Below, in pieces: positions 2 to 23,890 of a DNA stretch of 23,890 nucleotides. Source of the DNA: Candidatus Tayloriibacteriota bacterium (GTDB lineage Bacteria > Patescibacteriota > Minisyncoccia > Phycocordibacterales > JAKAEA01); contig JARIGY010000037.1 of the NCBI GenBank assembly GCA_029288535.1, forward strand, positions 1 to 23,890. Reading direction: 5' to 3'. The position numbers were made by a program, and so were the translations under genes. The notes beneath the pieces were generated by a model. It was not told the DNA's origin. It was given only the letters and a program-made list of their open reading frames with translations, and ran no database searches. Each line of letters starts with the position of its first letter. Position 1 is the stretch's first letter.

Positions 2-496
2 GAAAAGGCTGTCATTATCCTTCGCAAAATCAGCAAGGCCGTTGCGGACAAAAAGTCCGACCGGGTGTTCGGTGCCGGCGTCGTCCAGGCATACATCCAT
101 TCGAATGGCGCTGTCGGCGCTCTTGTCGAGCTCGTATGCGAGACGGACTTTGTTTCAAAGAATGAGGACTTCAAGGCGCTTGCCCGGGATATTGCCATGC
201 ATGCGACCGCGTCCGGTGCGGAGTACCTGAAAGCTTCAGACATTCCGGAAGACGCAAAGAAAACCGCAGCTGAAGTTTTTGAAAAAGAAGTCGATGCCGG
301 CAAGCCAGAAAATATCAAAGCCCAGATCCTGGAAGGCAAGCTCAAGACTTTCTTCAAGGAAAAAACGCTTCTTGATCAGGATTTCATCAAGAACCCCGAA
401 GTCACGATCCAGGGCCTGCTCGATTCCGGCATCCAGAAGTTCGGAGAAAAGATCGAGGTCGCCCGTTTCGCCCGTTTCTCGGTATTGGGCAAGTAG
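2..496 (+). CDS. tsf: Translation elongation factor Ts, 3' part
   Basis: EF-Ts is the cytoplasmic guanine-nucleotide exchange factor that recycles EF-Tu from its GDP form. The reading frame is open from base 2, so the start lies outside the window; about 164 residues remain. The segment VELVCETDFVSKNEDF is the highly conserved EF-Ts core signature in contact with EF-Tu, preceded by GAGVVQAYIHSNGAVG, a close match to the family's strand before it. The C-terminal part keeps the pattern KTFFKEKTLLDQDFIKNP, followed by a helical end. The missing portion should be the N-terminal UBA-like domain. In most bacteria tsf follows rpsB, which would be expected just left of the window. A small membrane-protein gene follows after 15 bases and may be cotranscribed. 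Confidence 0.96.
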   Translation, partial: EKAVIILRKISKAVADKKSDRVFGAGVVQAYIHSNGAVGALVELVCETDFVSKNEDFKALARDIAMHATASGAEYLKASDIPEDAKKTAAEVFEKEVDAGKPENIKAQILEGKLKTFFKEKTLLDQDFIKNPEVTIQGLLDSGIQKFGEKIEVARFARFSVLGK

Positions 497-5980: not shown

Positions 5981-7915
5981 ATGAAAGTCTCGCACAGCTG
6001 GCTCCAGACATACTTCAAAGAGAAAATCCCATCGGCAGAAAAACTGGCCGAGCTTTTTACTTTTCACGCATTCGAAGTCGAAGATGTTGCGCATGTCGGC
6101 GAAGACGCTGTTATAGATGTGAAGATTCTGCCCGACAGGGCGCACTACGCGCTTTCGCACCTCGGCATTGCTCGGGAAATAGCTGCCATCACCGGGCTGA
6201 CACTCAAGCACAAGGAAATTCTCGATGTTGAATCGGTAGTTCAAAAAGACCTGACTATCCTGATCGTGAATACCGACATGTGCCGCCGATATGTCGGCCG
6301 CAGAGTGGGCGCTGTGTCTGTCGGAGATTCTCCAGCCTGGCTTCAGGAAAGGCTTGAAGCCATCGGCCAGCGCTCGATAAACACTATCGTCGATGCGACG
6401 AATTTTGTCATGCACGACATTGGCCAGCCGCTTCATGCTTTCGACGCGGACAAAGTAGCGGGCGGCATCGTTGTCCGCAAAGCCATGGACGGCGAAAAAA
6501 TCACCACGCTCGACGGCCGGGAAGTGAATCTGGATCAGGGTATGCTTGTCATTGCGGATGATAGCGGCCCGCTTACCATTGCCGGAGTAAAAGGCGGCAG
6601 CAGGGCGGCGGTCACTGCATTTACCAAAAATATCATTATCGAATCGGCAAACTTCGAGCCGACTACGGTCCGCAAGACTTCCACCAAAGTCGGCATCCGC
6701 AACGATTCTTCCAAGCGCTTTGAAAATGAGATTTCGCCGGAGCTTGCGGGAATTGGGATGAAAGAAATTTCTGCGCTTATTCACACGCTTTCGCCCCACG
6801 CTGAGTTTGGGGAAATAGTGGACATCTATCCTGCTCCGGCAAAACCATGGACTGTAACTATTGCTCCTGAATACATTTCTTCGCTGCTTGGCCTTACTAT
6901 TTCAGAACAGGAAATAGTCGCGATCCTAAATAGGCTGCACATCAAAACGGAAAAGCAGAATGAAGAACTGGTGCTCGCTATTCCATATTGGCGGCTCGAC
7001 CTTACTGCTCCGCAGGACATTGCGGAAGAAGTTGGCCGGATTTACGGCTATGAAAAGATCCCGGCCGCGATGCTACCGCCAACCGAAAAGCAGTCGATCA
7101 ACAAGACGTTTTATTGGATTGAAAAAATCAAGGATATTCTCGCCGAGCGCGGGTATTCGGAAATCATGGCGTATTCGCTTGTCGGCCATGGCAGCGTGGA
7201 AATCCAGAATCCGCTCGCTTCGGACAAGGGTTTCCTGCGCGACAGATTGTATGAAGGCATAGAAAAAGCTCTTGCGTTCAATAGCCGCAACGCCGCTTTG
7301 CTCGGACAGGAAGAAATAAAAATTTTTGAAATCGGCAGCGTATTTACAGAAGGCGAGCGGGAAGAGACTTATCTTGCGATCGGCTATTTTTCCACGAAGA
7401 ATATAAAAAATAAGGAAAAAGCCGGTTGGGAACTGGTTGAAAATCTCGTTAAGGAAATAGGCGGGAAAATCGGCGCAGAGCTCAAAGGCGTACTTGAAAG
7501 CAGCGAGGCGGGGATCATATTCGAAATGAGCCTGACGAAACTCATCGAGCTTCTGCCGGCGCCCGAGGCGTGGGATATTTCAGAAAATAGCGCAGGGAAA
7601 AGCCAGCCGAAAAAATACAAGGCCGTTTCACCGTATCCGTTTGCGACCCGCGACATCGCGGCATTCGTTCCGGAAGGAGTTTCCCAGGAGAAAGCAGAAA
7701 AAATAATCATCGAAAAATCCGGCAGCCTTCTAGTGCGCGCCGACCTTTTCGATGTCTTTACCAAAACATTTCCTGACACTACCAAAAAAACCTCGTACGC
7801 GTTCCGGCTGGTTTTTCAGTCACAGGAAAAGACTCTTGCCGAAGATGAGATAAATTCGATCATGAAATCGATCACCGATGAAATGAATAGCCAGGATGGC
7901 TGGCAGGTGAGATAA
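5981..7915 (+). CDS. pheT: Phenylalanyl-tRNA synthetase beta subunit, reduced form
   Basis: This is the non-catalytic editing and structural subunit of PheRS. It has 644 residues against about 790-800 usual. The N-terminus goes directly from MKVSHSWLQTYF into VKILPDRAHYALSHLGIAREIAA (about 47-70), so the EMAP/OB tRNA-binding domain normally inserted there is absent. Then come the B3/B4 editing domain (about 90-270, with GQRSINTIVDATNFVM and GQPLHAFDADK), the B5 domain (about 285-365, IPYWRLDLTAPQDIAEEVGRIYGY shortened here), the catalytic-like core, and a C-terminal FDX-ACB anticodon-binding domain (about 545-644, starting YPFATRDIAAF). It is cotranscribed with pheS and is followed by a bidirectional terminator. 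Confidence 0.96.
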   Translation: MKVSHSWLQTYFKEKIPSAEKLAELFTFHAFEVEDVAHVGEDAVIDVKILPDRAHYALSHLGIAREIAAITGLTLKHKEILDVESVVQKDLTILIVNTDMCRRYVGRRVGAVSVGDSPAWLQERLEAIGQRSINTIVDATNFVMHDIGQPLHAFDADKVAGGIVVRKAMDGEKITTLDGREVNLDQGMLVIADDSGPLTIAGVKGGSRAAVTAFTKNIIIESANFEPTTVRKTSTKVGIRNDSSKRFENEISPELAGIGMKEISALIHTLSPHAEFGEIVDIYPAPAKPWTVTIAPEYISSLLGLTISEQEIVAILNRLHIKTEKQNEELVLAIPYWRLDLTAPQDIAEEVGRIYGYEKIPAAMLPPTEKQSINKTFYWIEKIKDILAERGYSEIMAYSLVGHGSVEIQNPLASDKGFLRDRLYEGIEKALAFNSRNAALLGQEEIKIFEIGSVFTEGEREETYLAIGYFSTKNIKNKEKAGWELVENLVKEIGGKIGAELKGVLESSEAGIIFEMSLTKLIELLPAPEAWDISENSAGKSQPKKYKAVSPYPFATRDIAAFVPEGVSQEKAEKIIIEKSGSLLVRADLFDVFTKTFPDTTKKTSYAFRLVFQSQEKTLAEDEINSIMKSITDEMNSQDGWQVR

Positions 7916-8823: not shown

Positions 8824-10914
8824 ATGGCTAAAACAGACGAAAAAAAGACAAAGAAAGAGCATGAGTACGGTGCGGACGATATCCAGGTCCTCGAAGGACT
8901 GGAACCGGTCCGAAAGCGGCCGGGCATGTATATCGGCACCACCGGACCGGACGGCCTCCACCACCTCATCTGGGAAATTTTCGACAACTCGCGCGATGAA
9001 GCCATGGGCGGTTTCGCCAACGACATCGAGGTCGTTATCTTGCCCGGAAATAAAGTGCGCGTCGTCGACAACGGCCGAGGCATTCCCGTCGACATCCACA
9101 AGCAGACAAAAGTTTCCGCTCTCGAAACGATCATGACTACGCTCCACGCCGGAGGCAAATTCGGCGGCGAAGGCTACAAAGTGTCCGGCGGTCTGCACGG
9201 CGTGGGCGCGTCCGTCGTCAACGCGCTTTCCGTCGATACCAAGGTTGTCGTCCACAAGAACGACGGCATTTACATGCAGGAATACGCGATCGGCAAGAAA
9301 AAGAAGGACGTCAAGAAGATCGGTTCGACAAAACAGCACGGCACCATCGTCAGCTTCCAGCCGGACGGCACTATCTTCCAGGAAACCAAATTCGATTTCA
9401 ACCGCGTTGTAAACCATTTGCGCCAGCAGGCGTACTTGGTCAAAGGACTTCGGATTTCTATTTTTGATGCCCGGGAATATGCGGGCGAAATCGACCTCGA
9501 CGATACCAAGATCATGTACTTCCGCGAGCTCGGCCTCGAAGTGCCTTCGATGTCGTTTTTCTTCGAAGGCGGACTGCGCTCGTTTGTCGCGTTCTACAAC
9601 CGCACACTCAAGCCGATCCACAAGAATATTTTTTATATCGAGAAAGACACGACCGACTACGGCTCGGTGGAAGTCGCGCTCCAGTATGTCGACGATATCA
9701 ATTCGCGCATCCTGCCATTTGCCAACAATATTTACAACTCCGAAGGCGGAACCCACATCACCGGTTTCAAGACTGCGCTTACCCGCATTCTCAATACCTA
9801 CGGGCGCAAGAATAACCTGATCAAGGAATCGGAAGATAACTTTACCGGTGAAGACGTACTTGAAGGTCTGACTGCCGTCGTGTCGGTCAAGATTCGCGAG
9901 ATCCAGTTTGAAGGCCAGACCAAGGCCAAGCTTGGAACTGTCGAAGCCAGAGGCATGGTGGAGACTATTTTCGGCGAAGCATTCAATGCGTATCTTGAGG
10001 AAAATCCCGAAGACGCCCGCGCGATAATCCAAAAAGTCATCCTGGCATTGCGCGCCCGAAAAGCCGCCAAAGCCGCAAAGGATTCGGTGCTCCGAAAAGG
10101 CGCTCTCGAAGGCATGACGCTTCCCGGCAAGCTCGCCGACTGCCAAAGCGGCACGTCGCCGGAAGATGCCGAGCTGTTTATCGTGGAAGGAGATTCCGCA
10201 GGCGGCACGGCCAAAATGGGACGCGACCGCCGCACGCAGGCTATCCTGCCGCTTCGAGGTAAGATCCTCAACGTCGAACGTGCCCGGCTCGATAAAATGC
10301 TCGGTTCCGAACAGATCAAGAACCTGGTTGTTGCACTCGGCACGGCTATCGGCGACACTTTCGATATCACCAAGCTCCGCTATCATAAAGTCATCATTGC
10401 GACCGATGCCGACGTGGACGGCGCGCACATCCGCACGCTCATCCTCACGCTGTTATATCGTTTTTTCCGGCCGCTTATCGACGGCGGGTATATCTACATC
10501 GCCCAGCCGCCGCTGTTTAAAATCAAAAAAGGCAAGGACGTTTTCTACGCATACTCGGACGAAGAGCGCGCCAAGATTCTTGGCAAGGACGCACCGAAGA
10601 TAGAAGAAATAGAGTCAACCGATGAAGCAGCTGAACCGGCCGAAGAAGAAACCGAAGAGCAGGTTGAGGCGGAAGTCAAAGCCGGCAAGCGCGTTCAAAA
10701 GATCACCGTTCAGCGCTACAAAGGTCTGGGAGAAATGAATGCCGAAGAGCTCAAGGAAACGACTATGGACGCCACCAAGCGCATCCTGAAACAGGTTCGT
10801 ATCGACGATGCCCAGGAGGCCGACAAAGTGTTCGATATTCTGATGGGTACCGATGTGCCTTCCCGAAAATCGTTTATCCAGTCAAACGCGCAGCGGGCGA
10901 ACTTGGATATTTAA
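8824..10914 (+). CDS. gyrB: DNA gyrase subunit B (type IIA topoisomerase ATPase subunit)
   Basis: This 696-residue protein supplies the ATPase and Toprim domains of gyrase, acting with GyrA to introduce negative supercoils. The GHKL ATPase domain shows EIFDNSRDEA (51-60, Asn and Asp/Glu for Mg-ATP), VVDNGRGIPVD (80-90) and GGLHGVGASVVNALS. The Toprim domain has EGDSAGG at 455-461 and DADVDGAH around 528-535, the metal-binding acidic cluster. QRYKGLGEMN and the C-terminal tail DVPSRKSFIQ are conserved. A Glu/Ala-rich acidic insertion (about 595-620) separates Toprim from the tail. ParE cannot be excluded from sequence alone, but the length and tail fit GyrB. gyrA is not in the window. A strong terminator follows. 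Confidence 0.93.
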   Translation: MAKTDEKKTKKEHEYGADDIQVLEGLEPVRKRPGMYIGTTGPDGLHHLIWEIFDNSRDEAMGGFANDIEVVILPGNKVRVVDNGRGIPVDIHKQTKVSALETIMTTLHAGGKFGGEGYKVSGGLHGVGASVVNALSVDTKVVVHKNDGIYMQEYAIGKKKKDVKKIGSTKQHGTIVSFQPDGTIFQETKFDFNRVVNHLRQQAYLVKGLRISIFDAREYAGEIDLDDTKIMYFRELGLEVPSMSFFFEGGLRSFVAFYNRTLKPIHKNIFYIEKDTTDYGSVEVALQYVDDINSRILPFANNIYNSEGGTHITGFKTALTRILNTYGRKNNLIKESEDNFTGEDVLEGLTAVVSVKIREIQFEGQTKAKLGTVEARGMVETIFGEAFNAYLEENPEDARAIIQKVILALRARKAAKAAKDSVLRKGALEGMTLPGKLADCQSGTSPEDAELFIVEGDSAGGTAKMGRDRRTQAILPLRGKILNVERARLDKMLGSEQIKNLVVALGTAIGDTFDITKLRYHKVIIATDADVDGAHIRTLILTLLYRFFRPLIDGGYIYIAQPPLFKIKKGKDVFYAYSDEERAKILGKDAPKIEEIESTDEAAEPAEEETEEQVEAEVKAGKRVQKITVQRYKGLGEMNAEELKETTMDATKRILKQVRIDDAQEADKVFDILMGTDVPSRKSFIQSNAQRANLDI

Positions 10915-11729: not shown

Positions 11730-13160
11730 TTAATTGCGGACGATGTTTACCGAGGTTGTATTATTGTTCTCGTTCGATTCTCCAACCTGGTTGGCGGAAT
11801 CGACAGTGATCGTTGCCGTGTTGCTACCGTAGTTCTGAAGCGTTTCAAAGACGATGCTGAATGTCATGCTCTGGCCGGGGTTCAGACTCGGTTCAGGGTC
11901 GGAGTCGTAGCTTGCGACGCGGCTATCGGTAGCGGGCAGAGTCGCATGGAACTTCCATGTGCCTGTCGGCGTTGTGCCGGAGTTGGTCACCACAAAACGG
12001 ATGCCGACGCGGTCGGAACTGCCGACAGAAGACTGTGCGGTGTAAACGCCGGTCGAACGATTGACGACTCCGGTGTCGAGTACTCGGACTGAAAGGTCGG
12101 CATTGCCGGTATTCGAACCGCTCGCAAAGTTATTGACGATATGGATCCGGGCCGTATTGTTGGCTTTTGAATATTCCATGAGAAAGTTGGAAGGGTCGGC
12201 AGTGATCGTCGCTATATTGTCCTGGGCATTGTCGATGTTTCTGAAGCCGAGCACGTATTCGATGCGGTCGCCGGGGCCGAGGTTCTGCTGGATGCCCGAG
12301 GTAAACCGAGGGTCGGTCTGGGAAGGGATGTCCATGGCGAATGTCCATGCACCGGTATTCTTGTCGCCGACGTTGACGATGGAGAACTTTATTGCTGCCT
12401 GCTGATTCGGATTTACCGAACCTGAAGGAATGAATACGCCGTTGTCATTTAAGTATCCGACTGAGATAGGGCGGACTTCGAGGTCAGGCAAGCCGTTCGG
12501 ATTCGACACTGCGCGAGTGCTGCGGACTATCGGGTGTGAAGATGCGGGAATGAGTTTCTTTGCAGGCTGGGTTGTGGTCGTGGCGCTCGTGCCAGTAGAT
12601 GGGGTGGTCGTAGCGGGAAGATTGTCACTCAGGCCGGTATTGGTGACGGTCACTGACGTGCTGCCGAGCGTATCGACAGTTGCGGCTCCGTTTTCAAGGA
12701 AGCCCAAAGTGATTTTTGCATCGGCGAAACGCGTACCTTCGGAGATAACGGTAACGTCGATTGAATTCTGGTTCGGTGAAAAATAGTAGGTTGTGCCGCA
12801 GGGAACCGTTTCGTTCGGCTGATTGACTGAAGTGACGAGGCGAAGACCGGTCGTGCAATCGTAGGTGAGGGAATAGGTGCCGTTGGTCTTGTGGCTGCCG
12901 TTCCATGAAATGGTAAACGTATCGCCGGAATTGACGTCGGTTTTATCGGTGGTTACGGTGACGGGTTTGTTGGGGGTGAATATCGAGGAGATGCTTGAAG
13001 CGATGGACGAAAAAGCATTGGGGATGAGCTTGATCGGCAAAAGGACTCCGACAACAAGCAGTACGACAAGAATAACAAGAACCGTTACTTTGAGGGCCTT
13101 GCTCGGTTTCTTCCTGTTTTCCAATTCGTTTTGTTCCTGTATGTCGCGTGGATTGTCCAT
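11730..13160 (-). CDS. Membrane-anchored extracellular Ig/CARDB-domain protein
   Basis: This 476-residue protein has a charged cytoplasmic N-terminus, a transmembrane helix at about 24-44 and the remainder predicted outside. Residues 66-175 form an Ig-like beta domain with two Cys (102 and 121). A Thr/Ser-rich linker (about 176-205) follows. Two repeats of about 120 residues (226-344 and 353-476) each have the CARDB pattern: PDLEVRPISV or ADLSVRVLDT at the start, F-x-V-x-N-x-G in the middle, LNPGQSMTF-type strand, and a final V-x-E-x-N-x-x-N-N (VGESNENNNT, MEYSKANNT). CARDB domains are adhesion-type beta sandwiches. It is divergent from the sortase, so it is likely part of the same surface locus. 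Its function is probably structural or adhesive; no catalytic motif is seen. Confidence 0.8.
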   Translation of the reverse strand: MDNPRDIQEQNELENRKKPSKALKVTVLVILVVLLVVGVLLPIKLIPNAFSSIASSISSIFTPNKPVTVTTDKTDVNSGDTFTISWNGSHKTNGTYSLTYDCTTGLRLVTSVNQPNETVPCGTTYYFSPNQNSIDVTVISEGTRFADAKITLGFLENGAATVDTLGSTSVTVTNTGLSDNLPATTTPSTGTSATTTTQPAKKLIPASSHPIVRSTRAVSNPNGLPDLEVRPISVGYLNDNGVFIPSGSVNPNQQAAIKFSIVNVGDKNTGAWTFAMDIPSQTDPRFTSGIQQNLGPGDRIEYVLGFRNIDNAQDNIATITADPSNFLMEYSKANNTARIHIVNNFASGSNTGNADLSVRVLDTGVVNRSTGVYTAQSSVGSSDRVGIRFVVTNSGTTPTGTWKFHATLPATDSRVASYDSDPEPSLNPGQSMTFSIVFETLQNYGSNTATITVDSANQVGESNENNNTTSVNIVRN

Positions 13161-13277: not shown

Positions 13278-14018
13278 ATGAGTCAATACCGCCAAAAACC
13301 CAGGCCGCCAGCGTCATTTCTCGACATAGTCTGGCGCTATAAATTCTACCTGGCATTTTACATTATCTGCATTTCCTTTGCGTCTTTCGCGCTGCTCTAC
13401 TTCATTGGAGGGGTGCCGGATGAGTTGCGGGTGCTCGATGCGGAAAAGCCTGTGCCGGCTGTCGTTACGACTATCGACAATACCAGCCAGGCATCGACAA
13501 CTCCGCCTGTTACGCCTGCCGCTGTGCCCTTGAAAACCCTGCCGGCAACCGGCAAAAAGCTCGATTATTCCTACGGTCCGGACTACCCGGTGCGGATACT
13601 CATCGATAAGATAGCTGTCGACACGAGCGTCAGCAACCCTATTTCCACCAACGTAGATTTTCTCAATAATGCCCTGCTTAAAGGTGCAGTGCGCTATGCC
13701 GGTTCCGGTACGCTCGGTCATGGCAATATGTTCATTTTCGCTCACAATACGGGTATCAAGATCGTAAATAATCAGGCGTACAAGGCCTTCAATCATCTCA
13801 AAAACCTGGCGGCAGGGGACACGATCCGGGTCCAGTCGACCGACGCGGAATATATCTACACGGTTACTTCGGTCAAACTTGTCGACAGCAGCCAGTCGTG
13901 GGTGACCTTTTCAAACGATAGGAACATGCTTACGCTTTCGACTTGCGATGTTTTCGGGGAAAAGCAGGACCGCTACGTAGTTGAAGCCACATTCTCACAG
14001 TCGATTCCACTCCGGTAA
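13278..14018 (+). CDS. Sortase family transpeptidase
   Basis: Sortases cleave surface proteins at an LPxTG-like motif and join them to an amine acceptor outside the cell. This 246-residue protein has an N-terminal cytoplasmic stretch, one transmembrane helix (about 22-44), a Pro/Thr-rich linker and a sortase beta-barrel domain (about 100-240). The catalytic His is likely H156 in GNMFIFAHNTG, the Cys is C223 in LTLSTC and the Arg is R232 in EKQDRYVVEA. The linker carries an LPATG pentapeptide (88-92), identical to a canonical substrate motif. It is followed directly by the large surface protein with a VPYTG motif, its probable substrate. The subclass cannot be set by eye. Start at 13278 is supported by the upstream -10 and by the position of the helix. 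Confidence 0.88.
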   Translation: MSQYRQKPRPPASFLDIVWRYKFYLAFYIICISFASFALLYFIGGVPDELRVLDAEKPVPAVVTTIDNTSQASTTPPVTPAAVPLKTLPATGKKLDYSYGPDYPVRILIDKIAVDTSVSNPISTNVDFLNNALLKGAVRYAGSGTLGHGNMFIFAHNTGIKIVNNQAYKAFNHLKNLAAGDTIRVQSTDAEYIYTVTSVKLVDSSQSWVTFSNDRNMLTLSTCDVFGEKQDRYVVEATFSQSIPLR

Positions 14019-14166: not shown

Positions 14167-17100
14167 ATGATGAAGAAAATCGGCATGGTGAGTGGTATTC
14201 TTGCGGCTGTCGCCCTGACAGTTGCTTTCGGCTACCACGTGAGCGGAGAGCTTTCGTTGGCAAACGCGTCGGGCGATAATACGCCTATCGTGCAAACCGC
14301 ACCGGCTACCGATATTACCGCCACCTCGGCGCTTCTTCACGGGATCGCAAGCAATAACGGCGGTGAAAACGGCCATGTCTGGTTTGAATACGGAATGAAT
14401 CCAACTGCTCCGGTCTATGCCGACGCATGGCCCTCCCAGGCAGGTTCGCAAAGCTTCGATGGCGAATCAGACATGAACCTCTCGGTTCCGATCTCGAGCC
14501 TCTCTCCAGGTACGACCTACTATTACCGTGTCGCTTCAGAAAACTCTGCCGGACAAACCTATGGCGAAACACTCAGCTTCAAAACTACGGCCGATACCGC
14601 GGTCCAGGCTTGCGCAGACAATACAACGTTGACTCTCGCAGAAACCAAAGCGGCTATCGCCAGCGGCAAAATTACCGTCTCTTTGGCAAACAGCACAACG
14701 GAAAACAAGGCGATCGGCACCATCAAAAATGATACCGGCTGCGCGCTGCCTGTCAGCCAGGCGACTTTCAAAATGTTCGATCAGAAACTTGCAACGCAAG
14801 TGCTTTTGGATTACGCGCCTTCCGCCGGAAACACCACAAATGTTCCCGCACATACCACCATTGCCCTTAAAACAAACCTTCCGTCATGTATGGCGCAGAG
14901 CGACATCTTCTACGGCGCTGCTCCAACTACCCTTAATGAGTCAAACAATTATCCTCAGAATCTTACCTACAACTTTTTTCAGAATAGTGGATCCAATTAC
15001 TTCGACGCGGCTGGCAACTTCTGCGGCAACACTCCCGATCTCGGCACGCTCACGCTCGTAAAAACCGTTTCAAATACCCATGGCGGCACGAAGCAGGTTG
15101 CGGATTTCGCCCTCTTCGAAAACGGCGTCCAGGTAACCAGCGGTCAGGCAACGAGCTACAACTTCGCGTCCCTTAACGACAATAAGATTTTTACCGCGAC
15201 CGAAACCAACCTTCCCGGCTATACGGCAGGAGCATGGGGCGGCGATTGTACAGCGGACGGAAAAGTCACGCTTCATCCCGGCGAACACAAAACCTGCACT
15301 ATTACCAATAGCGACGCGCCTGCTGTCATTACTTCATCCTGCGCAGACAACACGACCCTGACTCTCGCAGAAACCAAAGCGGCTGTCGCCAGCGGCAAGA
15401 TTACTGTTACTTTGGCAAACAGCACAACGGAAAATAAGGCGATCGGTACCGTACATAACGACACCGGCTGCGCGCTGCCTGTCAGCCAGGTCACATACAA
15501 GATGTTCGACCAGCAGCTTTCAACCCAGGAACTTTTTGATTACGCGCCGGCTCCGACCGGAAGCGTGCTTACTGTCCCTGCCCACACTGTCGGTCATCTG
15601 AACACGAATCTCCCTGTTTGCATGGCTCAGTCCGACCTTTACTATGGTCCCGGCCCTATAACTCTCAATGACGCAAACAACTATCCGAACAATTTGGCAT
15701 TCGCATTCAGCATGAATAACGCGAATAATTATTTCAACGCGGCGGGAAATTTCTGTCAGCATACTTCACCTACCACCTCCCTCAAGCTTATTAAAAATGT
15801 CATCAACGACAACGGCGGTACCAAAGTCGCGACTGACTTTCCTTTGTTCGTCAACACAACCCAGGTCACAACCGGCCAGGATAATACTTTCGCGCCTGGC
15901 ACCTACAAGGCTTCGGAAACCAACCTTCCCGGCTACACTGCCGGAACATGGGGCGGCGACTGTGCCGCAGACGGAACGGTTGTCCTGAATGCGGGCGATC
16001 ACAAAACCTGTACGATCACAAACAACGATAACCCTGCAACAGTAACCAATACTTTTGCATTGACCTGCAGCGCAAATCCTACTTCCGCGCTGATAGGTAC
16101 AGCCATTACCTATACCGCAAACGCAACGAACGGAACAGGCTCATATGTTTACTCATGGACCGGCGACGACGGTTTGAGCGGCAATGCAACGACCACTTCG
16201 ATAACCTACAGTTCAATCGGCACAAAGAACGCGACGGTTACCGCCACATCCGGCGGCCAGACCCTTACCGCGCAGTGCAGCGTACCCATTACCGTTACTC
16301 CGGTTATAAACCCCGGCTGTACGAACTGCGGATTTCTCTACCCGCCAAATAATCCTCCTCCAGTGACTGTTACGAGTACGCCAAACCCAGGCCAGGTCGC
16401 CGGCGTCTTCCTGAGCCAGGTGCCATACACCGGTATCGGCAGCAACTTCAAAGTCGCGCTTTTCATGGTCGCTCTCTTCAGTTGGAGTGCGTGGATCTCG
16501 TACCTTATCATCAAGCGCAAGGCTGCAAAGAGCGGCGTCACTGTCGCCCAAATGTTTCAGAATCCTGTTGCAGCTTCGACCATGGCATTTGCCGGAAGCA
16601 TGAGCATGCCGAAAGTAAGCATTACCGCCATTCCCCATGAACCGAAAAAACTCGAAGGGTTGGTAACATCGCCTTTCCTCGAACACATGACCCAGAAGCC
16701 GGCTCCGAAGTATGAACCTGTAATGACACCTAAAAAAGCTGAGTCAAACATACTGCCGGAAATCGCCAAGCCTCAGGCGCAGATCGCGATCGCCTCATCG
16801 AAGGATGACGTTGTCAACAGTCTTGAAATGCGGGCCCGCGAATTGCAGACCCTTGTTTCAGCCGACGGACTGGAGATCATCGCAAAAGCTTCGGACAACA
16901 ATAAGCACAACGCGCTCATCATCCTCACGCATCTCGTCGAGCTCTACAAGGGTTCGGAGCACGAAGTCGAGGGTGATTGGATGGTGCTGAACGGAGAAAA
17001 AATCAACAGCATTCTTTTCTCAACCTACATCACCATGACACCGGTATTCATCCAGTGGCTCGCCGAAGGCGATGACAAGAAGACGATGGCGTTTGTCCGC

Positions 17101-17370
17101 ATGCTTCAGATGCAGGGCCAAACTGTCAAAGACTTTGTCATGAATATTGTTATCGAGCTCGACAAGGCGTACCGTTTCCGCGTTGAAAACACCGGAGACG
17201 CAGACGCGCAGATCCTCGACTCGACCATGCAGTGGTCAAACCAGGAACTCGAAACTGTCATCCATACGCTTGTTACCGCAGTCGACCAGACATACTCATC
17301 GGTCTATTCCTCAGTGAAGATCGCTTTGGTAAAAGTTCTCGACCTGGCACGGACAAAGGCGCTCGCTTAA
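14167..17370 (+). CDS. Large modular surface protein with VPYTG motif and cytoplasmic domain
   Basis: This 1067-residue protein has a signal peptide (about 1-35) and a fibronectin-III-like module (40-142). A four-Cys domain I do not recognise follows (C149, C192, C241, C286), then a prealbumin-like domain (293-383, GYTAGAWGGDC...HKTCTITN). The pair is then repeated: C392, C435, C485, C530 and 537-621. A PKD/Ig-like domain (628-712) and a Pro-rich linker lead to VPYTG (752-756) and a transmembrane helix (761-782) ending KRK. This resembles a sortase sorting signal, but instead of ending there the protein continues about 285 residues on the predicted cytoplasmic side. That part is Cys-free and mainly helical after about 850, with no known motif. 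It lies 148 bases after the sortase gene and before two secreted paralogues. Adhesion or envelope display is inferred; the domain layout is seen directly. Confidence 0.85.
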   Translation: MMKKIGMVSGILAAVALTVAFGYHVSGELSLANASGDNTPIVQTAPATDITATSALLHGIASNNGGENGHVWFEYGMNPTAPVYADAWPSQAGSQSFDGESDMNLSVPISSLSPGTTYYYRVASENSAGQTYGETLSFKTTADTAVQACADNTTLTLAETKAAIASGKITVSLANSTTENKAIGTIKNDTGCALPVSQATFKMFDQKLATQVLLDYAPSAGNTTNVPAHTTIALKTNLPSCMAQSDIFYGAAPTTLNESNNYPQNLTYNFFQNSGSNYFDAAGNFCGNTPDLGTLTLVKTVSNTHGGTKQVADFALFENGVQVTSGQATSYNFASLNDNKIFTATETNLPGYTAGAWGGDCTADGKVTLHPGEHKTCTITNSDAPAVITSSCADNTTLTLAETKAAVASGKITVTLANSTTENKAIGTVHNDTGCALPVSQVTYKMFDQQLSTQELFDYAPAPTGSVLTVPAHTVGHLNTNLPVCMAQSDLYYGPGPITLNDANNYPNNLAFAFSMNNANNYFNAAGNFCQHTSPTTSLKLIKNVINDNGGTKVATDFPLFVNTTQVTTGQDNTFAPGTYKASETNLPGYTAGTWGGDCAADGTVVLNAGDHKTCTITNNDNPATVTNTFALTCSANPTSALIGTAITYTANATNGTGSYVYSWTGDDGLSGNATTTSITYSSIGTKNATVTATSGGQTLTAQCSVPITVTPVINPGCTNCGFLYPPNNPPPVTVTSTPNPGQVAGVFLSQVPYTGIGSNFKVALFMVALFSWSAWISYLIIKRKAAKSGVTVAQMFQNPVAASTMAFAGSMSMPKVSITAIPHEPKKLEGLVTSPFLEHMTQKPAPKYEPVMTPKKAESNILPEIAKPQAQIAIASSKDDVVNSLEMRARELQTLVSADGLEIIAKASDNNKHNALIILTHLVELYKGSEHEVEGDWMVLNGEKINSILFSTYITMTPVFIQWLAEGDDKKTMAFVRMLQMQGQTVKDFVMNIVIELDKAYRFRVENTGDADAQILDSTMQWSNQELETVIHTLVTAVDQTYSSVYSSVKIALVKVLDLARTKALA
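14611..15315 (+). repeat. First copy of the four-Cys plus prealbumin-like unit
   Basis: This codes for residues 149-383 of the large surface protein. It is a direct repeat of 15340-16029. Stretches such as CTCGCAGAAACCAAAGCGGC and AACAGCACAACGGAAAA are identical in both copies, showing a recent internal duplication, while the prealbumin part has diverged more. Confidence 0.85.
15340..16029 (+). repeat. Second copy of the four-Cys plus prealbumin-like unit
   Basis: This codes for residues 392-621. Cysteine spacings in the first half (43, 50, 45) match the first copy (43, 49, 45). The end of the four-Cys part is closer to the single copy in the next gene (NNYPNNLA-AFSMNNANNY) than to the first copy, suggesting exchange between genes. 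Confidence 0.85.
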
Positions 17371-17396: not shown

Positions 17397-18245
17397 ATGA
17401 AAAAATATATTTACACTTTGGCAATTGCCGCAGCCGCAGCTGGTTTGGGTATCGCAAGCCATCACGCTACTGCCGCCCAGAAGAATACCTGGCCGATCAT
17501 CTACACCCTTGATTCTTCAAATGTCACTTCAAGTTCGGCTACGCTGAACGGCCTTATTACGCCCCGCGACGGAGCAACAAATTCCGTGTGGTTCGAATAC
17601 GGCAACAATTTCGTTCCCGGCAACTTCGCCGCTTCATGGCCTTCAAAATCCCCAGTACAGCTTGTAAACGGTTCAGCGCAGGTAAAAATATCCGCAACGT
17701 TGAATGGTCTTAAACCAAACACCCTTTACTATTACCATATCCAGGCAAAAAACAGCGCCGGCCAGAACGGTTACGGCCCCGGCATCGATATCAGTTTCCG
17801 CACCCTCAGTGCGCCTGCAAAGCCCGCTCCAGTCGCAGCTTGCGCCAACGGATCCGTGCTTTCACTGCAGGAAGCCAAAGCCGCAATTGCCGCGGGCAGC
17901 ATCAAAGTCAACCTCGCGCTCGACGGGCAGCATGCCTCAGGTACTGTCTGGAACAATACCGGCTGTGCAATGCCGGTGAGCCAGACGACATACAAGATGT
18001 TCGATCGTCAGCTCATGACCCAGCAGCTTTTCAGCAGTTCAAACGCTGTTGTCGCAGCCCGCTCTTCAGCTGTGATCCGCACGACTCTTGCCTCATGCAT
18101 GAGTCAGACTGACATGTATTACGGCTACGCAAGCCCGGAAGTGCTCGACAATGCGAACAACTATCCAAACAACCTGGCGTACGCATTCAGCATGAATAAC
18201 GCCAATAACTACTACAACGCGTCCGGCAACTTTTGCCGCCAGTAG
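17397..18245 (+). CDS. Secreted FN3-like plus four-Cys domain protein
   Basis: This 282-residue protein has a signal peptide (about 1-27, cleavage near ATA-AQ). A fibronectin-III-like module (32-138) follows, with SSATLNGLI, VWFEYGNNF, LKPNTLYYYHIQA and the end ISFRTLS. A single four-Cys domain (C149, C190, C234, C280) closes the protein, homologous to the two in the upstream large protein. The protein ends two residues after the last Cys, so it has no sorting motif or membrane anchor and must be released or held by partners. It starts 26 bases after the previous stop; a TAAGATACAATA string (17371-17382) just ahead may include a -10 box (TACAAT). It could be an accessory subunit of the same surface structure; no enzymatic motif is visible. 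Confidence 0.8.
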   Translation: MKKYIYTLAIAAAAAGLGIASHHATAAQKNTWPIIYTLDSSNVTSSSATLNGLITPRDGATNSVWFEYGNNFVPGNFAASWPSKSPVQLVNGSAQVKISATLNGLKPNTLYYYHIQAKNSAGQNGYGPGIDISFRTLSAPAKPAPVAACANGSVLSLQEAKAAIAAGSIKVNLALDGQHASGTVWNNTGCAMPVSQTTYKMFDRQLMTQQLFSSSNAVVAARSSAVIRTTLASCMSQTDMYYGYASPEVLDNANNYPNNLAYAFSMNNANNYYNASGNFCRQ

Positions 18246-18331: not shown

Positions 18332-18922
18332 ATGCTACAAAAAATAGTCCGAATCCCAGCCAGCCGTTTTCTTGGTCTTGTTTTGATCCTTTCGAGTTTT
18401 GCGTTTGCCGGCAGCCCCGTCTTCGCGTCGGGTGTCAGAGGCAGCAGATCATGGCCGATAACTTATACGCTCGATACTACAAACGTCACATCGAACTCAG
18501 CAACTCTCAATGGCCTTATTTCCGGCTCCGATCTCGGCAATGACCAGGTGTGGTTCGAGTATGGCGACAATTTCACTCCGGGCAATTACAGCGCTTCATG
18601 GCCGTTTAAATCGGGCGTGCAGGAGGTTTCGGGCATAAATCAAAGGACGGTATCTATGCAGATTTCCAATCTGAAGCCCGATACGCTCTACTATTACCAT
18701 ATCAAAGCGGTTAACAAATATGGCCAGAACGGTTACGGCCCCGGCATCGATATCAGTTTCAGGACGCTAAGCAATAGAATTTTGCAGCCGGTAGTAGCCA
18801 CATTTAATAACTACAATAACAACACATACAACACTACTTCTACAGTAAACACGACGAATAATACCAACTATAGCACCACGAACAACAATTATTCAGAATC
18901 GGCTTATATCACCAAAGAATAG
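18332..18922 (+). CDS. Secreted FN3-like protein with Asn/Thr-rich tail
   Basis: This 196-residue protein has a signal peptide (about 1-33) and one fibronectin-III-like module (41-147), very similar to the module of the preceding gene: WPITYTLDTTNV, VWFEYGDNF, LYYYHIKAVN and NGYGPGIDISFRTLS. The four-Cys domain is absent and replaced by a low-complexity tail (about 158-190) made almost only of Asn, Thr, Tyr and Ser. The tail has no anchor and could be a glycosylation-rich or sticky stretch; a truncated paralogue is the other reading. It ends four bases before the convergent thrS stop, leaving no space for a separate terminator. No catalytic residues are seen. Confidence 0.78.
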   Translation: MLQKIVRIPASRFLGLVLILSSFAFAGSPVFASGVRGSRSWPITYTLDTTNVTSNSATLNGLISGSDLGNDQVWFEYGDNFTPGNYSASWPFKSGVQEVSGINQRTVSMQISNLKPDTLYYYHIKAVNKYGQNGYGPGIDISFRTLSNRILQPVVATFNNYNNNTYNTTSTVNTTNNTNYSTTNNNYSESAYITKE

Positions 18923-18925
18923 CGT

Positions 18926-20692
18926 CTACTTCTTCTCTTTTATTTCTTCGCTAACTTTTGCGATAAGTTCAGGGAGGGAAATGTGTCCAAGCTGGCCATG
19001 GTCGCGACTTTCGAGCGTGACCATTTCGGCTTCGACTTCCTTGTCGCCGATGACAAGCCAGTAGGGGATCTTTTCAACTTTGGCAGCGCGGACTTTTTTG
19101 CCGAGGCCTTCGTCCGAGTTGTCGAAGTCTACCCGCATGCCGATAGCTTTAAGCTGATCTGAAACTTCTTTGGCAAATTCATTGTAGTTTTCTCTGATAG
19201 GAATTACCTTGATTTGGACTGGAGAGAGCCAGAGCGGGAAGCTGCCCGCAGTGTGTTCGATGAGAGTCGCCATGAAGCGTTCGATAGAACCCATGATAGC
19301 GGCGTGGATCATCACGACATCGTCTTTCTTGCCCTCTTCGTTGGTATAACTCAAGCCGAAATTTTTTGGCATGTTGAAGTCGAGCTGGATGGTTGCAACC
19401 TGGAGTATCCGGCCGATAGCGTCTTTGGCGATGAAGTCTAGTTTGGGTCCATAAAATGCTGCTTCGCCTTTGCCGTCGGTCCACTCAACTCCACGGGTTT
19501 TCATGAGCTTAACAAGTGCGCCTTCGGATTTTTCCCATGTTTCTTTAGTTCCCAAATATTTTTCAAAGTGCTCTGGGTCATGCCTGGAAAAACGCACTTT
19601 GATATCTTTGAATCCGAAAGTCCCATAGAACTGATCGATAATGTCCCAAATAGAAAATACTTCCTGCTCGATCTGATTCTCCCGGCAGAAGACATGCGCA
19701 TCGTCCTGAGTAATAGAAAGCACGCGGGACAAACCGGAAAGCTCACCTGATTGTTCATCCCGGTAGACCATGGTTGTTTCTGCATACCTCTGCGGCATGT
19801 CGCGGTAGCTGCGGGGTTCAGAATCGAAAATCTGAGTGTGATGCGGGCAGTTCATCGGCTTGACGACGTATGTCTTGCCTTCGCGCGTTTCGATCTTGAA
19901 AAGGTCGTCGGCATATTTTTGCCAATGACCTGATGTTTCGTACAGATCTTTTTTGGTTAGGTGGGGAATGGTTACTTTTTGATAGCCTTTGGCGCTGCGA
20001 AGTTCCCAAATATATTTGTCGAGCAGGTCGCGGATGATCGTGCCTTTTGGCGTCCATAAAGGAAGTCCGGGACCGACGAGCGGAGAAAACACAAAGAGGC
20101 CCATTTCCTTGCCGATTTTTTTGTGATCCCTTTTCTTCGCTTCTTCAAGCTGGGCCTCATATGCCTCGAGCTCCTCCTTTGTCTGGAAAGCCAGGCCGTA
20201 AATGCGCGTTAGCATCTTGTTCTTTTCGTCTCCGCGCCAGTACGCGCCGGCTACGCGGTCCAGTTTAAATGCTTTCGAATCGATATCCTTCTTGGGGTTT
20301 TCGACGTGGCCGCCGCGGCATAGATCAGTGAAAGCTCCGGAAGTGTACAGAGTTATTTTTTCGTTTTTGCTTACGATTTCCTTGATGAGTTCTAACTTGT
20401 ACGGATTATCCTTGAAATGCTCTTCTGCTTCTGTTTCTGTAACTTCTTTGTGGGAAAAAGATTCCCAACCCTTCAATAGCTCGCGCATCTTCTGTTCGAT
20501 CTTGCCGAGCTCCTTGTCGCCGATGGTGACGCCGGCAGGGAATTCGAAATCGTAATAGAAGCCGTTATCGATCGCCGGACCGATAGTGTTCTTGGTCTCA
20601 GGCCAGAATGCAAGCACGGCGGCGGCCGTAAGGTGGGCAAGGGTGTGGCGGATATGGGCGAGCTGTTCTTCGTTTTTCATACCGGTCATCAT
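18926..20692 (-). CDS. thrS: Threonyl-tRNA synthetase lacking the TGS domain
   Basis: This enzyme charges tRNA-Thr, whose gene is at 921-996. It has 588 residues against about 640 usual, because the N-terminal TGS domain is missing and the protein starts at the editing domain. The editing site is HTLAH (16-20) with CRGGH further on, the Cys/His set that removes mischarged Ser. The catalytic core has the zinc ligands in NCPHH, DDAHVF and IHAAIMG, plus motif 2 YRDEQSGELSGLSRV. The C-terminal anticodon-binding domain (about 490-588) contains PYWLVIGDKEVE. The upstream ATG overlaps a likely -10 box (TATGAT, 20693-20688), so the fifth-codon ATG at 20680 is probably the real start. Confidence 0.96.
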   Translation of the reverse strand: MMTGMKNEEQLAHIRHTLAHLTAAAVLAFWPETKNTIGPAIDNGFYYDFEFPAGVTIGDKELGKIEQKMRELLKGWESFSHKEVTETEAEEHFKDNPYKLELIKEIVSKNEKITLYTSGAFTDLCRGGHVENPKKDIDSKAFKLDRVAGAYWRGDEKNKMLTRIYGLAFQTKEELEAYEAQLEEAKKRDHKKIGKEMGLFVFSPLVGPGLPLWTPKGTIIRDLLDKYIWELRSAKGYQKVTIPHLTKKDLYETSGHWQKYADDLFKIETREGKTYVVKPMNCPHHTQIFDSEPRSYRDMPQRYAETTMVYRDEQSGELSGLSRVLSITQDDAHVFCRENQIEQEVFSIWDIIDQFYGTFGFKDIKVRFSRHDPEHFEKYLGTKETWEKSEGALVKLMKTRGVEWTDGKGEAAFYGPKLDFIAKDAIGRILQVATIQLDFNMPKNFGLSYTNEEGKKDDVVMIHAAIMGSIERFMATLIEHTAGSFPLWLSPVQIKVIPIRENYNEFAKEVSDQLKAIGMRVDFDNSDEGLGKKVRAAKVEKIPYWLVIGDKEVEAEMVTLESRDHGQLGHISLPELIAKVSEEIKEKK

Positions 20693-21857: not shown

Positions 21858-23890
21858 TTACAGCGTCTTAGCCTTGTCGATAATAATGGAAGGTATGCCG
21901 TTGCGCGCCGAGAGCCGGCCTTTGATGGCGATGCAGGCATCGGGCATGAAGTGCTGCTCGAGATCTTTTAATATTTTTGGAAAGACGACGGCTTCGATGG
22001 AACCTGTCGTGTCGGCGATTTTTACGAAGAGCATTTTGTCGCCTTTCTTGGTAAGGATCGGCTTTGATTCTTCGACGACGCCATAGGCGACGGCCATCAT
22101 TCCTTCTTTCAGCGTTTCCTTCAGTTCTTTGATGGTCATGTCGCGCTTGCCGAGCTTGTCGGCGTAGGTGTCGAGCGGATGGCCGGAAACATAGAGTCCG
22201 AGCAATTCCTTTTCCCAGGCAAGCTTGTCGCGCATGATCGCCGGCGGCGCTTCGCGAAGGCGCAGAGTGGGAACGCTCGACGTGTCGGCCATCAGGCCGA
22301 AAAGCGAATCCTGTTCGTGCACGTCGGTAGATTCCTTATTGTATTTCAAAAGATCGTCGAGGTTTTCGAGCATCTGGCCGCGTTCGCCGAGCAGATCCAT
22401 CGCTCCGCATTTGGTGAGCGATTCGAGCGATTTTTTATTCAGGTTCCTGTCTTTGATCCTGTGCAGGAAATCGAGCAGGCTTTTGAACGGTCCGCCGCGT
22501 GTGCGCTCGGCGATGATCGCCGTGCCGATGCCTTCGCCGAAGTTCTTGATCGTCGTCAAACCGAAACGGATCGCGTCGCGGGTTTGCCCCTCTTGTTCAT
22601 AGGGGTCGGACGAAGTCCGGGGGAGATTCTTCACCACCGTAAACCCCTCGAAACTTTCATTGATATCCGGCGGCAGCACGGGTATCTTCATGCGCTTGCA
22701 CTCGGCGATGATTTCCGCCACTTTTTCGGTGTCGCCCGATTCGGCCGAAAGCACCGCGCTCATGTAGATAGCGGGGTAATTGGCTTTCATGTACGCGGTC
22801 TGGTACGCGACTTTGCCGTAGCTCGCGGCATGGGCTTTGTTGAATCCGTAGGCGGCAAACGGTTCGATCTGCTTCCAGAGAAGTTCGGCCTTTTTCTCGT
22901 CGAGGCCATGCTTGATGAAGCCGTCGTGGAGCTTGGCTTTTTGCGCTTCCATTTCCGCCGGGATTTTTTTGCCCATGGCTTTGCGCAGTTTGTCGGCCTC
23001 GAGCCACGAGTAGCCGGCGAGGTGGATGGCGGTGAGCATCACGTCGTCCTGGTAGGTGATGACACCATACGATTGATCGAGAATTTCCTTGAGCCGCGGG
23101 TCGGTATACTGCACGAGATGCGGGTTGTGCTTGCGCTCGATGTAGGTCGGGATCATTTCCATCGGGCCCGGTCGGTACAGCGCCACCATGGCGTTGATGT
23201 CGTGAATGCTCGACGGTTTGAGCTCTTTCAAAAAGCGCGTCATACCCGAGCCGTTGAGCTGGAAGAGTCCGACCGTCTCGCCGCGGGCCAGCATGCGGAA
23301 TGTTTTCGGGTCGTCGAGCGGGATGTTTTCGATATCGACGTCGACATGCTCGATCTGTTTTACCAGGATAACCGCGTCGGCAAGAATGGACAGGTTGCGG
23401 ATTCCGAGAAAGTCGAATTTGAGAAGGCCGACGCCGTCCTCGCCGACGCCGTGCATGTCGTATTGGGTGATGAGCTTGTTGCCTTCTTTCGAGTCGTACT
23501 GCAGAGGCACATGCTCGGTCAATGCGTCGGGAGAAATGACAACGCCGGCGGCATGCACCGAGATGTGCCGGGCGCAGCCTTCGATCTTTTTTGCTAAATC
23601 TATTATTTCTTTCACTTCAGGCTCTTTGGCGTACATTGTTGCGAGCTCCGGCACTTCCTCGAGCGCCCGGTCTATCGTCATGGCAAAACCCTGCGAGCCC
23701 ATCGGGATAAGTTTCGAGATCCGGTCGCCGGTGGTGTATGGGTAGCCCAACGCCCGGGAGACGTCGCGCACCGCGCCTTTTGCTGCCATAGTACCGAAGG
23801 TGCCGATCTGGGCGACTTTGTCTATGCCGTATTTTTCGCGCGCATACTGGATCATCTCGTCGCGGCGGTTGTCGGCGTAGTCCATGTCGA
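21858..23890 (-). CDS. dnaE: DNA polymerase III alpha subunit, C-terminal part
   Basis: This is the replicative polymerase. The frame is open to the right edge, so the PHP domain and the first part of the palm are outside the window. About 677 residues remain, beginning with DMDYADNRRDEMIQY, which contains the catalytic Asp pair. The third palm Asp is in LKFDFLGIRNLSIL. The fingers and beta-binding region show YQDDVMLTAIHLAGY and GFNKAHAASYGKVAYQTAYMKA, then tandem HhH motifs. An OB-fold domain (MAVAYGVVEESKPIL...) ends the protein, so the tau-binding tail of long DnaE forms is absent. An unusual segment, LPRTSSDPYEQEGQTRD, is inserted before AIRFGLTTIKN and is encoded by palindromic DNA (next entry). 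Confidence 0.95.
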   Translation of the reverse strand, partial: DMDYADNRRDEMIQYAREKYGIDKVAQIGTFGTMAAKGAVRDVSRALGYPYTTGDRISKLIPMGSQGFAMTIDRALEEVPELATMYAKEPEVKEIIDLAKKIEGCARHISVHAAGVVISPDALTEHVPLQYDSKEGNKLITQYDMHGVGEDGVGLLKFDFLGIRNLSILADAVILVKQIEHVDVDIENIPLDDPKTFRMLARGETVGLFQLNGSGMTRFLKELKPSSIHDINAMVALYRPGPMEMIPTYIERKHNPHLVQYTDPRLKEILDQSYGVITYQDDVMLTAIHLAGYSWLEADKLRKAMGKKIPAEMEAQKAKLHDGFIKHGLDEKKAELLWKQIEPFAAYGFNKAHAASYGKVAYQTAYMKANYPAIYMSAVLSAESGDTEKVAEIIAECKRMKIPVLPPDINESFEGFTVVKNLPRTSSDPYEQEGQTRDAIRFGLTTIKNFGEGIGTAIIAERTRGGPFKSLLDFLHRIKDRNLNKKSLESLTKCGAMDLLGERGQMLENLDDLLKYNKESTDVHEQDSLFGLMADTSSVPTLRLREAPPAIMRDKLAWEKELLGLYVSGHPLDTYADKLGKRDMTIKELKETLKEGMMAVAYGVVEESKPILTKKGDKMLFVKIADTTGSIEAVVFPKILKDLEQHFMPDACIAIKGRLSARNGIPSIIIDKAKTL
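22585..22625 (-). repeat. Small palindromic element inserted in dnaE
   Basis: Two adjacent hairpins lie here: CCCCT-9-AGGGG (22587-22605) and CGGAC-GAA-GTCCG (22607-22619). The coding strand reads through them in frame as about twelve residues, RTSSDPYEQEGQ, at a site where DnaE proteins usually pass directly from FTVV to AIRFGL. This fits a mobile palindromic element that has been fixed in a tolerant loop. No other copy was found in the window. Confidence 0.5.

What the first reader, a model, noticed from the sequence alone, without database searches (positions are those of the whole stretch)
16420..17370. Sortase-like VPYTG motif followed by a 285-residue cytoplasmic domain
In ordinary sortase substrates the LPxTG motif, hydrophobic helix and a few basic residues form the very end of the protein. 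Here VPYTG (752-756), a helix (761-782) and KRK are in the right order, but about 285 further residues follow on the predicted cytoplasmic side. The sortase gene is next door. If cleaved, the extracellular part would be released or attached elsewhere and the inner domain left in the membrane, which would couple surface assembly to an intracellular signal. If not cleaved, the protein is a transmembrane connector.
Basis: partly seen in the sequence, partly recalled or inferred. Interest (0 to 1): 0.75.

Follow-up and report, generated by a model that had tools for sequence, protein, structure and literature searches.

The report
Surface protein with a DnaX-like tail
In a group of tiny, mostly uncultured bacteria, a surface protein carries the cutting mark of the enzyme sortase in its middle instead of at its end, and behind the membrane helix sits an inner domain related to DnaX, the core part of the DNA-clamp loader, which is an unexpected thing to find on a surface protein.

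Summary
ORF 14167-17370 (1067 aa) has VPYTG (752-756), one helix (763-782), KRK, then 282 more residues. It is a conserved gene family, not a fusion error. The tail domain occurs in 74 of 397 genomes of the order; in 65 of 74 it follows xPxTG plus helix, PYTG in 60. A sortase lies upstream on the same strand in 54 of 74. Of intact proteins, 5 of 10 in genomes without a detected sortase lack the motif, against 2 of 62 elsewhere.

The inner domain (880-1067) is related to domains II and III of DnaX (clamp-loader lid and collar), without ATPase domain or sensor-2 arginine. Three lines agree: family models, profile comparison with the relatives' own DnaX (P 3.5e-8; best of 30 shuffled controls 0.029), and an AlphaFold model (pLDDT 89.5) for which all 19 PDB chains at Foldseek E <= 0.001 are E. 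coli clamp loader. Cleavage and the tail's role are inferred; I favour a cytoplasmic docking or clustering platform.

The parts
14167..17370 (+). the whole gene, 1067 aa: signal peptide, modular ectodomain, xPxTG sorting signal, helix, linker, DnaX-like lid and collar
14167..14268 (+). signal peptide region (residues 1-34, hydrophobic 5-23)
   Evidence: hydropathy; the end after ANA is by eye
14380..16293 (+). ectodomain: PurAP-N/Fn3-like module (72-140), two SpaA_2 modules (best 537-617), PKD-like module (about 632-709, below Pfam's cut-off)
16399..16434 (+). sorting signal with its conserved upstream residues (745-756, AGVFLSQVPYTG); VPYTG itself is 16420-16434
   Evidence: conservation in 65 proteins
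16453..16512 (+). transmembrane helix (763-782)
16513..16521 (+). KRK after the helix (783-785)
16522..16803 (+). cytoplasmic linker (786-879), variable in length among homologues
   Evidence: alignment
16804..17016 (+). tail domain D1: AAA+ lid-like (DnaX domain II), residues 880-950; His914 stands at the sensor-2 Arg position
17017..17367 (+). tail domain D2: clamp-loader collar-like (DnaX domain III), residues 951-1067
13278..14018 (+). sortase, 246 aa, with TLSTC and DRYVV; the partner gene
   Evidence: PF04203; co-occurrence and placement
11730..13160 (-). CARDB protein with an N-terminal hydrophobic stretch, 476 aa, part of the conserved neighbourhood
   Evidence: found in 5 of 12 named loci examined
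17397..18245 (+). protein sharing ectodomain modules, no sorting signal in the translation
18332..18922 (+). Fn3-like protein, no sorting signal in the translation

Best explanation
The gene encodes a substrate of the neighbouring sortase that is built with a cytoplasmic module. The signal peptide exports the ectodomain, the helix and KRK stop transfer, and a lid-plus-collar domain related to DnaX stays in the cytoplasm (parts shown by sequence and predicted fold; topology inferred). The sortase next door recognises YLSQxPYTG and cleaves between T and G (inferred from conservation, co-occurrence and co-loss). The DnaX-like tail lacks what a working ATPase lid needs; it most likely acts as a docking or clustering module, as the collar does in clamp loaders: it gathers the precursors, or holds them to a cytoplasmic partner, so that the ectodomains are presented together to the sortase. 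After cleavage the ectodomain is attached elsewhere on the surface and the helix plus tail remains in the membrane. My odds: identity of the parts about 0.9; cleavage about 0.75; docking or clustering role of the tail about 0.4.
For: xPYTG is invariant in 18 of 18 aligned sequences, and xPxTG plus helix stands before the tail in 65 of 74 genomes, where residues that the search pattern did not impose are conserved too (Y in 60, the Leu four before P in 62, the Gln two before P in 53 of 65). All 19 genomes with the module among 41 relatives have a sortase against 3 of the 22 others (P 6e-9); in 397 genomes 63 of 74 tail genomes have one against 119 of 323 others (P 1.3e-14). Sortase upstream on the same strand in 54 of 74. 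Co-loss: of 72 proteins, leaving out two whose motif region is cut off by a contig end, the motif is missing in 5 of 10 from genomes without a detected sortase and in 2 of 62 from genomes with one (P 3e-4); G102 keeps a 94-residue sortase-like relic. Tail related to DnaX domains II-III. Sensor-2 position: no Arg in 26 rows of A4 or in 19 rows of an overlapping set, while 26 of 26 DnaX of relatives have it; no Walker A. The invariant tail residue R126 (Arg1005 of the protein) has a counterpart, R in 21 and K in 4 of 26 DnaX. The tail is more conserved than the ectodomain in 11 of 11 comparisons made, out of 17 relatives (50-88% against 28-71% identity), so it is not idle.
Against: No cleavage product, no oligomer and no partner is shown. 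Of 21 related proteins read, 6 have tails of 29-51 residues, 7 have tails of 77-132 (lid only) and one (L023) ends a few residues after the helix like an ordinary substrate, so the collar is not needed for every substrate of this type. Two uncut tail proteins lack the motif although the genome has a sortase (G044, G120), so the tail can exist without this cleavage. Five proteins keep the motif in genomes without a detected sortase (four of them explained in part, see Tried and rejected). Kinship of the genomes inflates the P values.
Confidence: 0.5

Rival explanations
1. The tail joins or mimics the cell's clamp loader. It offers a DnaX-type collar to delta, delta' or DnaX itself at the membrane, so that the surface protein, or its sortase-cut remnant, tethers or titrates the replication machinery and couples attachment to DNA replication.
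For: Closest relative among those compared is DnaX (26-row tail alignment: P 3.5e-8, against 0.0026 for HolA, 0.1 for the HolB candidates, 0.064 for RuvB); the collar is the part by which clamp-loader subunits assemble (recalled); 28 of 30 relatives searched have a DnaX over the cut-off, so there is a partner to meet; two of 12 named loci show the whole row gyrB, CARDB protein, sortase, thrS, dnaE of the window (L213, L219).
Against: About 12% identity with E. coli gamma. At a collar position where 26 of 26 DnaX have Arg, 25 of 26 tails have Asp (D120), a reversed charge, so that surface is not a plain copy of DnaX (a paired, opposite surface is conceivable). Lid-only tails exist. The neighbourhood may be plain vertical inheritance.
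Confidence: 0.17
2. The protein is never cut. VPYTG is kept for another reason (for example structure at the helix edge) and the protein is a permanent transmembrane connector between surface and a cytoplasmic partner.
For: Genomes G102, G129, G136 and G178, without a detected sortase, keep helix and at least part of the tail; G044 and G120 have a tail without the motif; G163 has the motif without a detected sortase.
Against: In G102, G136, G178 and G129 the motif reads APYIG, LPEVG, LPETS and none (by eye), which is expected if a sortase was what kept it; sortase co-occurrence and position.
Confidence: 0.15
3. The tail is a passive leftover of an old gene fusion, tolerated because it is cut off.
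For: Tails differ in length among 21 related proteins: 7 long, 7 lid-only, 6 short, 1 almost none.
Against: In 11 of 11 comparisons made the tail is more conserved than the ectodomain; the fold-bearing sequence recurs in 74 of 397 genomes.
Confidence: 0.07
4. Frameshift or assembly error joining two genes.
For: One Paceibacter source has the corresponding region as two proteins, P0015 and P0020.
Against: Same fusion in other assemblies and in 65 of 74 genomes.
Confidence: 0.01

Closest known systems
Sortase substrates with an LPxTG cell-wall sorting signal (Gram-positive surface proteins and pilins)
   Same: N-terminal hydrophobic signal, xPxTG, helix, basic residues, sortase gene beside it, SpaA-type ectodomain modules
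   Different: the signal is internal: 77-365 residues follow the helix window in 65 relatives; the conserved stretch is longer, YLSQxPYTG; the cytoplasmic part holds a folded domain
DnaX (gamma/tau), domains II and III, of the bacterial clamp loader
   Different: no AAA+ ATPase domain, no Walker A, no sensor-2 Arg; attached to the membrane through a surface protein
RuvB lid
   Different: profile match weak (P 0.064 and 0.011 with the two tail alignments); it covers the lid only
PEP-CTERM/exosortase and GlyGly-CTERM/rhombosortase substrates (recalled; PMC1569441 and PMC6219818 seen in search listings only)
   Same: motif-helix-basic signal tied to a dedicated enzyme
   Different: their signals are C-terminal

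Membership tests
Sortase substrate (LPxTG-type) | xPxTG motif directly before a helix | tested here: met
   65 of 74 relatives
Sortase substrate (LPxTG-type) | export signal at the N-terminus | tested here: met
   hydrophobic window 5-23, mean 1.95; no dedicated signal-peptide program was run
Sortase substrate (LPxTG-type) | basic residues after the helix | tested here: met
   KRK; 61 of 65 relatives have two or more K/R in the 15 residues after the helix window
Sortase substrate (LPxTG-type) | signal at the extreme C-terminus | tested here: not met
   285 residues follow the helix
Sortase substrate (LPxTG-type) | sortase in the genome, often adjacent | tested here: met
Sortase substrate (LPxTG-type) | cleavage between T and G and transpeptidation | not testable with these tools
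   needs biochemistry; co-loss of motif and sortase is indirect support
DnaX (clamp-loader gamma/tau) | AAA+ domain I with Walker A | tested here: not met
   no GK[ST] in the protein; the profile match to DnaX begins at its position 174
DnaX (clamp-loader gamma/tau) | lid with sensor-2 arginine (position recalled) | tested here: not met
   R in 26 of 26 DnaX of relatives, in none of 26 and none of 19 tail rows, overlapping sets with 1 and 2 gaps
DnaX (clamp-loader gamma/tau) | domain III collar fold | tested here: met
   predicted model only; profile match to DnaX 174-359
DnaX (clamp-loader gamma/tau) | score above the curated cut-off of the DnaX model | tested here: not met
   TIGR02397 matches 8 of 17 members, best E 8.9e-5; the window's domain scores 18.3 bits against a cut-off of 250
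DnaX (clamp-loader gamma/tau) | oligomerises into a clamp-loader ring | not testable with these tools
   no complex prediction available

The most novel reading that the evidence does not exclude
A transmembrane surface protein whose inner domain is a captured DnaX lid-collar that still talks to the clamp loader. Sortase cleavage outside, perhaps on host contact or at the end of surface assembly, changes the state of a membrane-held clamp-loader part inside and so ties the surface of a host-dependent cell to its DNA replication. In the window and in two named loci the gene lies in the row gyrB - sortase - substrate - thrS - dnaE, and a collar Arg that is invariant in the DnaX examined is an Asp in the tail, as if the two surfaces were made to pair.
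Probability: 0.12. Interest if true: 0.95.

Novelty: new variant of a known kind. Interest (0 to 1): 0.78.

Why it matters
Sortase sorting signals are defined as C-terminal. Here a lineage of Patescibacteria uses an internal one and keeps a folded cytoplasmic domain behind it, so, if the cut is made, the cell retains a membrane stub with a definite fold after each cleavage. That the fold is that of a replication-machine part (DnaX lid and collar) on a surface protein is unexpected and gives a concrete, testable entry to how these cells link surface, envelope and cell cycle. A search for sorting signals that demands a C-terminal position would miss the family (inference).

Tried and rejected

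Results against the reading: G044 and G120 have tail without motif but with a sortase. Five proteins keep the motif in genomes without a PF04203 match: G163 on a large contig; G321, G357 and G394, whose gene starts at or near a contig end; and G387, where phmmer finds a sortase 240 nt upstream after all. G186 has a second-half-only protein without a hydrophobic window. G168 and G269 were dropped from the motif-by-sortase table because a contig end cuts them. In one search I placed 47 of the 63 genomes that have both; the tool's list of sortase places was truncated; 38 of 47 were upstream on the same strand, 8 on other contigs, 1 far away on the other strand. Of the 22 phylum-level matches, 16 are weak; of 14 of those that I read, 13 are DnaX and one (L209) is unclear.

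Papers: searches listed no title or abstract start that reports a sortase substrate with a clamp-loader-like tail; the lists were capped in several of them. Only titles and starts of abstracts were seen, except PMC6744442, of which I saw passages. Papers outside the open library are not covered.

Full report
What is there. ORF 14167-17370 encodes 1067 residues without interruption. It starts with a hydrophobic segment (5-23), runs through a PurAP-N/Fn3-like, two SpaA_2 and a PKD-like module, and reaches VFLSQVPYTG at 747-756, a helix at 763-782, KRK, a linker, and a domain at 880-1067. No other hydrophobic window reached the threshold. The gene follows a sortase on the same strand; a second sortase sits on contig C88 of the genome.

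The architecture is a family. A protein search with residues 742-1067 found 18 proteins including the window's own. In the alignment of 18 sequences the invariant columns are L749, P753, Y754, T755, G756, L770 and S774, that is, the sorting signal and two helix residues. Among 41 related genomes 20 match, one of which (G023) matches outside the motif. I read 21 proteins from these loci: 7 have tails of 219-312 residues, 7 of 77-132, 6 of 29-51, and one (L023) ends a few residues after the helix (classes drawn by me). The middle class holds only the first half of the domain.

With a profile of the domain, 74 of 397 genomes of the order match at E <= 0.001. I took one frame per genome from the fetched neighbourhoods: 65 of 74 have xPxTG and a helix before the domain (VPYTG 29, IPYTG 26, LPYTG 4, TPYTG 1, VPHTG 2, IPATG 2, VPETG 1). 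Positions that the search pattern did not impose are also conserved: Y in 60, the leucine four before P in 62, Q two before P in 53 of 65. A spread search over the phylum (379 genomes) gave 22 matches; the six strong ones, the window's own among them, are all of the same order. Of 14 weak ones that I read, 13 are DnaX itself, so the profile of the tail picks up DnaX in genomes it was not made from. Twelve loci from named records were found; their titles name Parcubacteria, Taylorbacteria, Kaiserbacteria, Giovannonibacteria, Paceibacterota, Patescibacteria or only uncultured bacterium, and several of them match in motif and helix only.

The sortase link. All 19 genomes with the motif module among the 41 have a PF04203 sortase; of the other 22 only 3 have one. 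In the order, 63 of 74 tail genomes have a sortase against 119 of 323 others. These P values ignore kinship. Placement: 38 of 47 placed pairs have the sortase 0.8-7.8 kb upstream of the tail match on the same strand; together with phmmer hits in the fetched loci the union is 54 of 74. The neighbourhood is old: thrS lies in 50 and gyrB in 19 of the 74 stretches (median stretch 6 kb, so these are lower bounds), and the named loci L213 and L219 show gyrB, CARDB protein, sortase, thrS and dnaE in the order of the window, two of 12 examined; seven others show parts of the row and three show none of it.

A natural experiment. Nine of the 74 lack the motif. Two are cut by contig ends. Five lie in genomes without a PF04203 match: G102 reads APYIG and keeps a 94-residue frame with a 39-residue sortase match, G136 reads LPEVG, G178 LPETS, G129 has lost the ectodomain and the motif, G186 has only the second half of the domain and no hydrophobic window (motif readings by eye). 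Two, G044 and G120, have a sortase. Of the 65 with the motif, 5 lie in genomes without a PF04203 match, one of them wrongly (G387) and three with the gene at or near a contig end. The table is 60, 5, 2, 5, P 3e-4. So a sortase seems to be what keeps the motif, and the helix and tail can outlive it.

How it most likely works. Shown: parts, fold by prediction, conservation, gene partnership. Inferred: export to the helix, cut by the neighbouring sortase after T755, transfer of the ectodomain, and a membrane stub with the tail inside. The tail is more conserved than the ectodomain in 11 of 11 comparisons made, so it does something. The collar of clamp loaders is an assembly surface (recalled), and the loss of the ATP-sensing arginine speaks for a structural or docking use. 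I therefore favour clustering or docking of precursors, at about 0.4, over a direct tie to the replication machinery at 0.17, which is the more exciting reading and which the data do not exclude.

Novelty. The parts are known kinds; an internal sorting signal followed by a folded, DnaX-like cytoplasmic domain did not appear in the paper lists that I could search. PMC6744442 (passages seen) reports that more than half of CPR have a sortase family that is near ubiquitous in Microgenomates and patchy in other CPR; this arrangement is not in the passages seen.

Noticed in passing
L011, L013, L018, L024 (C-terminal ends of xPxTG proteins): Short tails of four proteins from three genomes (G013 twice, G011, G019) share a pattern FKx[ED]N near the end, so even some short cytoplasmic ends look constrained; it may be another docking motif.
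   Followed up: no
17397-18245 and 18332-18922: Two proteins behind the substrate share its ectodomain modules but carry no sorting signal; they could be partners or caps of the anchored protein.
   Followed up: no
L093 (G102), + strand near 6149-6430: A 94-residue sortase-like relic with TLSTC kept (phmmer E 4.5e-5), in the genome whose substrate motif reads APYIG.
   Followed up: partly
11730-13160 (-): CARDB protein conserved between gyrB and the sortase in named loci; by eye the G102 member of the tail family begins with a similar N-terminal part.
   Followed up: partly
8824-10914 (+), 18926-20692 (-), 21858-23885 (-): The surface locus sits beside gyrB, thrS and dnaE, and thrS or gyrB recurs in 54 of 74 fetched stretches.
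   Followed up: partly
P0015 and P0020: In a Candidatus Paceibacter source the protein ends 56 residues after the helix, and a separate 215-aa protein listed with a contig of the same length (10,601 bases) carries the tail domain: a split gene or a frameshift.
   Followed up: no
G000:C88:2218-2637: Second sortase of the same genome; its substrates were not looked for beyond the short locus.
   Followed up: no
tail domain residue D120 (Asp999 of the protein): Asp in 25 of 26 tails where 26 of 26 DnaX of relatives have Arg: a reversed charge at a position fixed in both families.
   Followed up: partly
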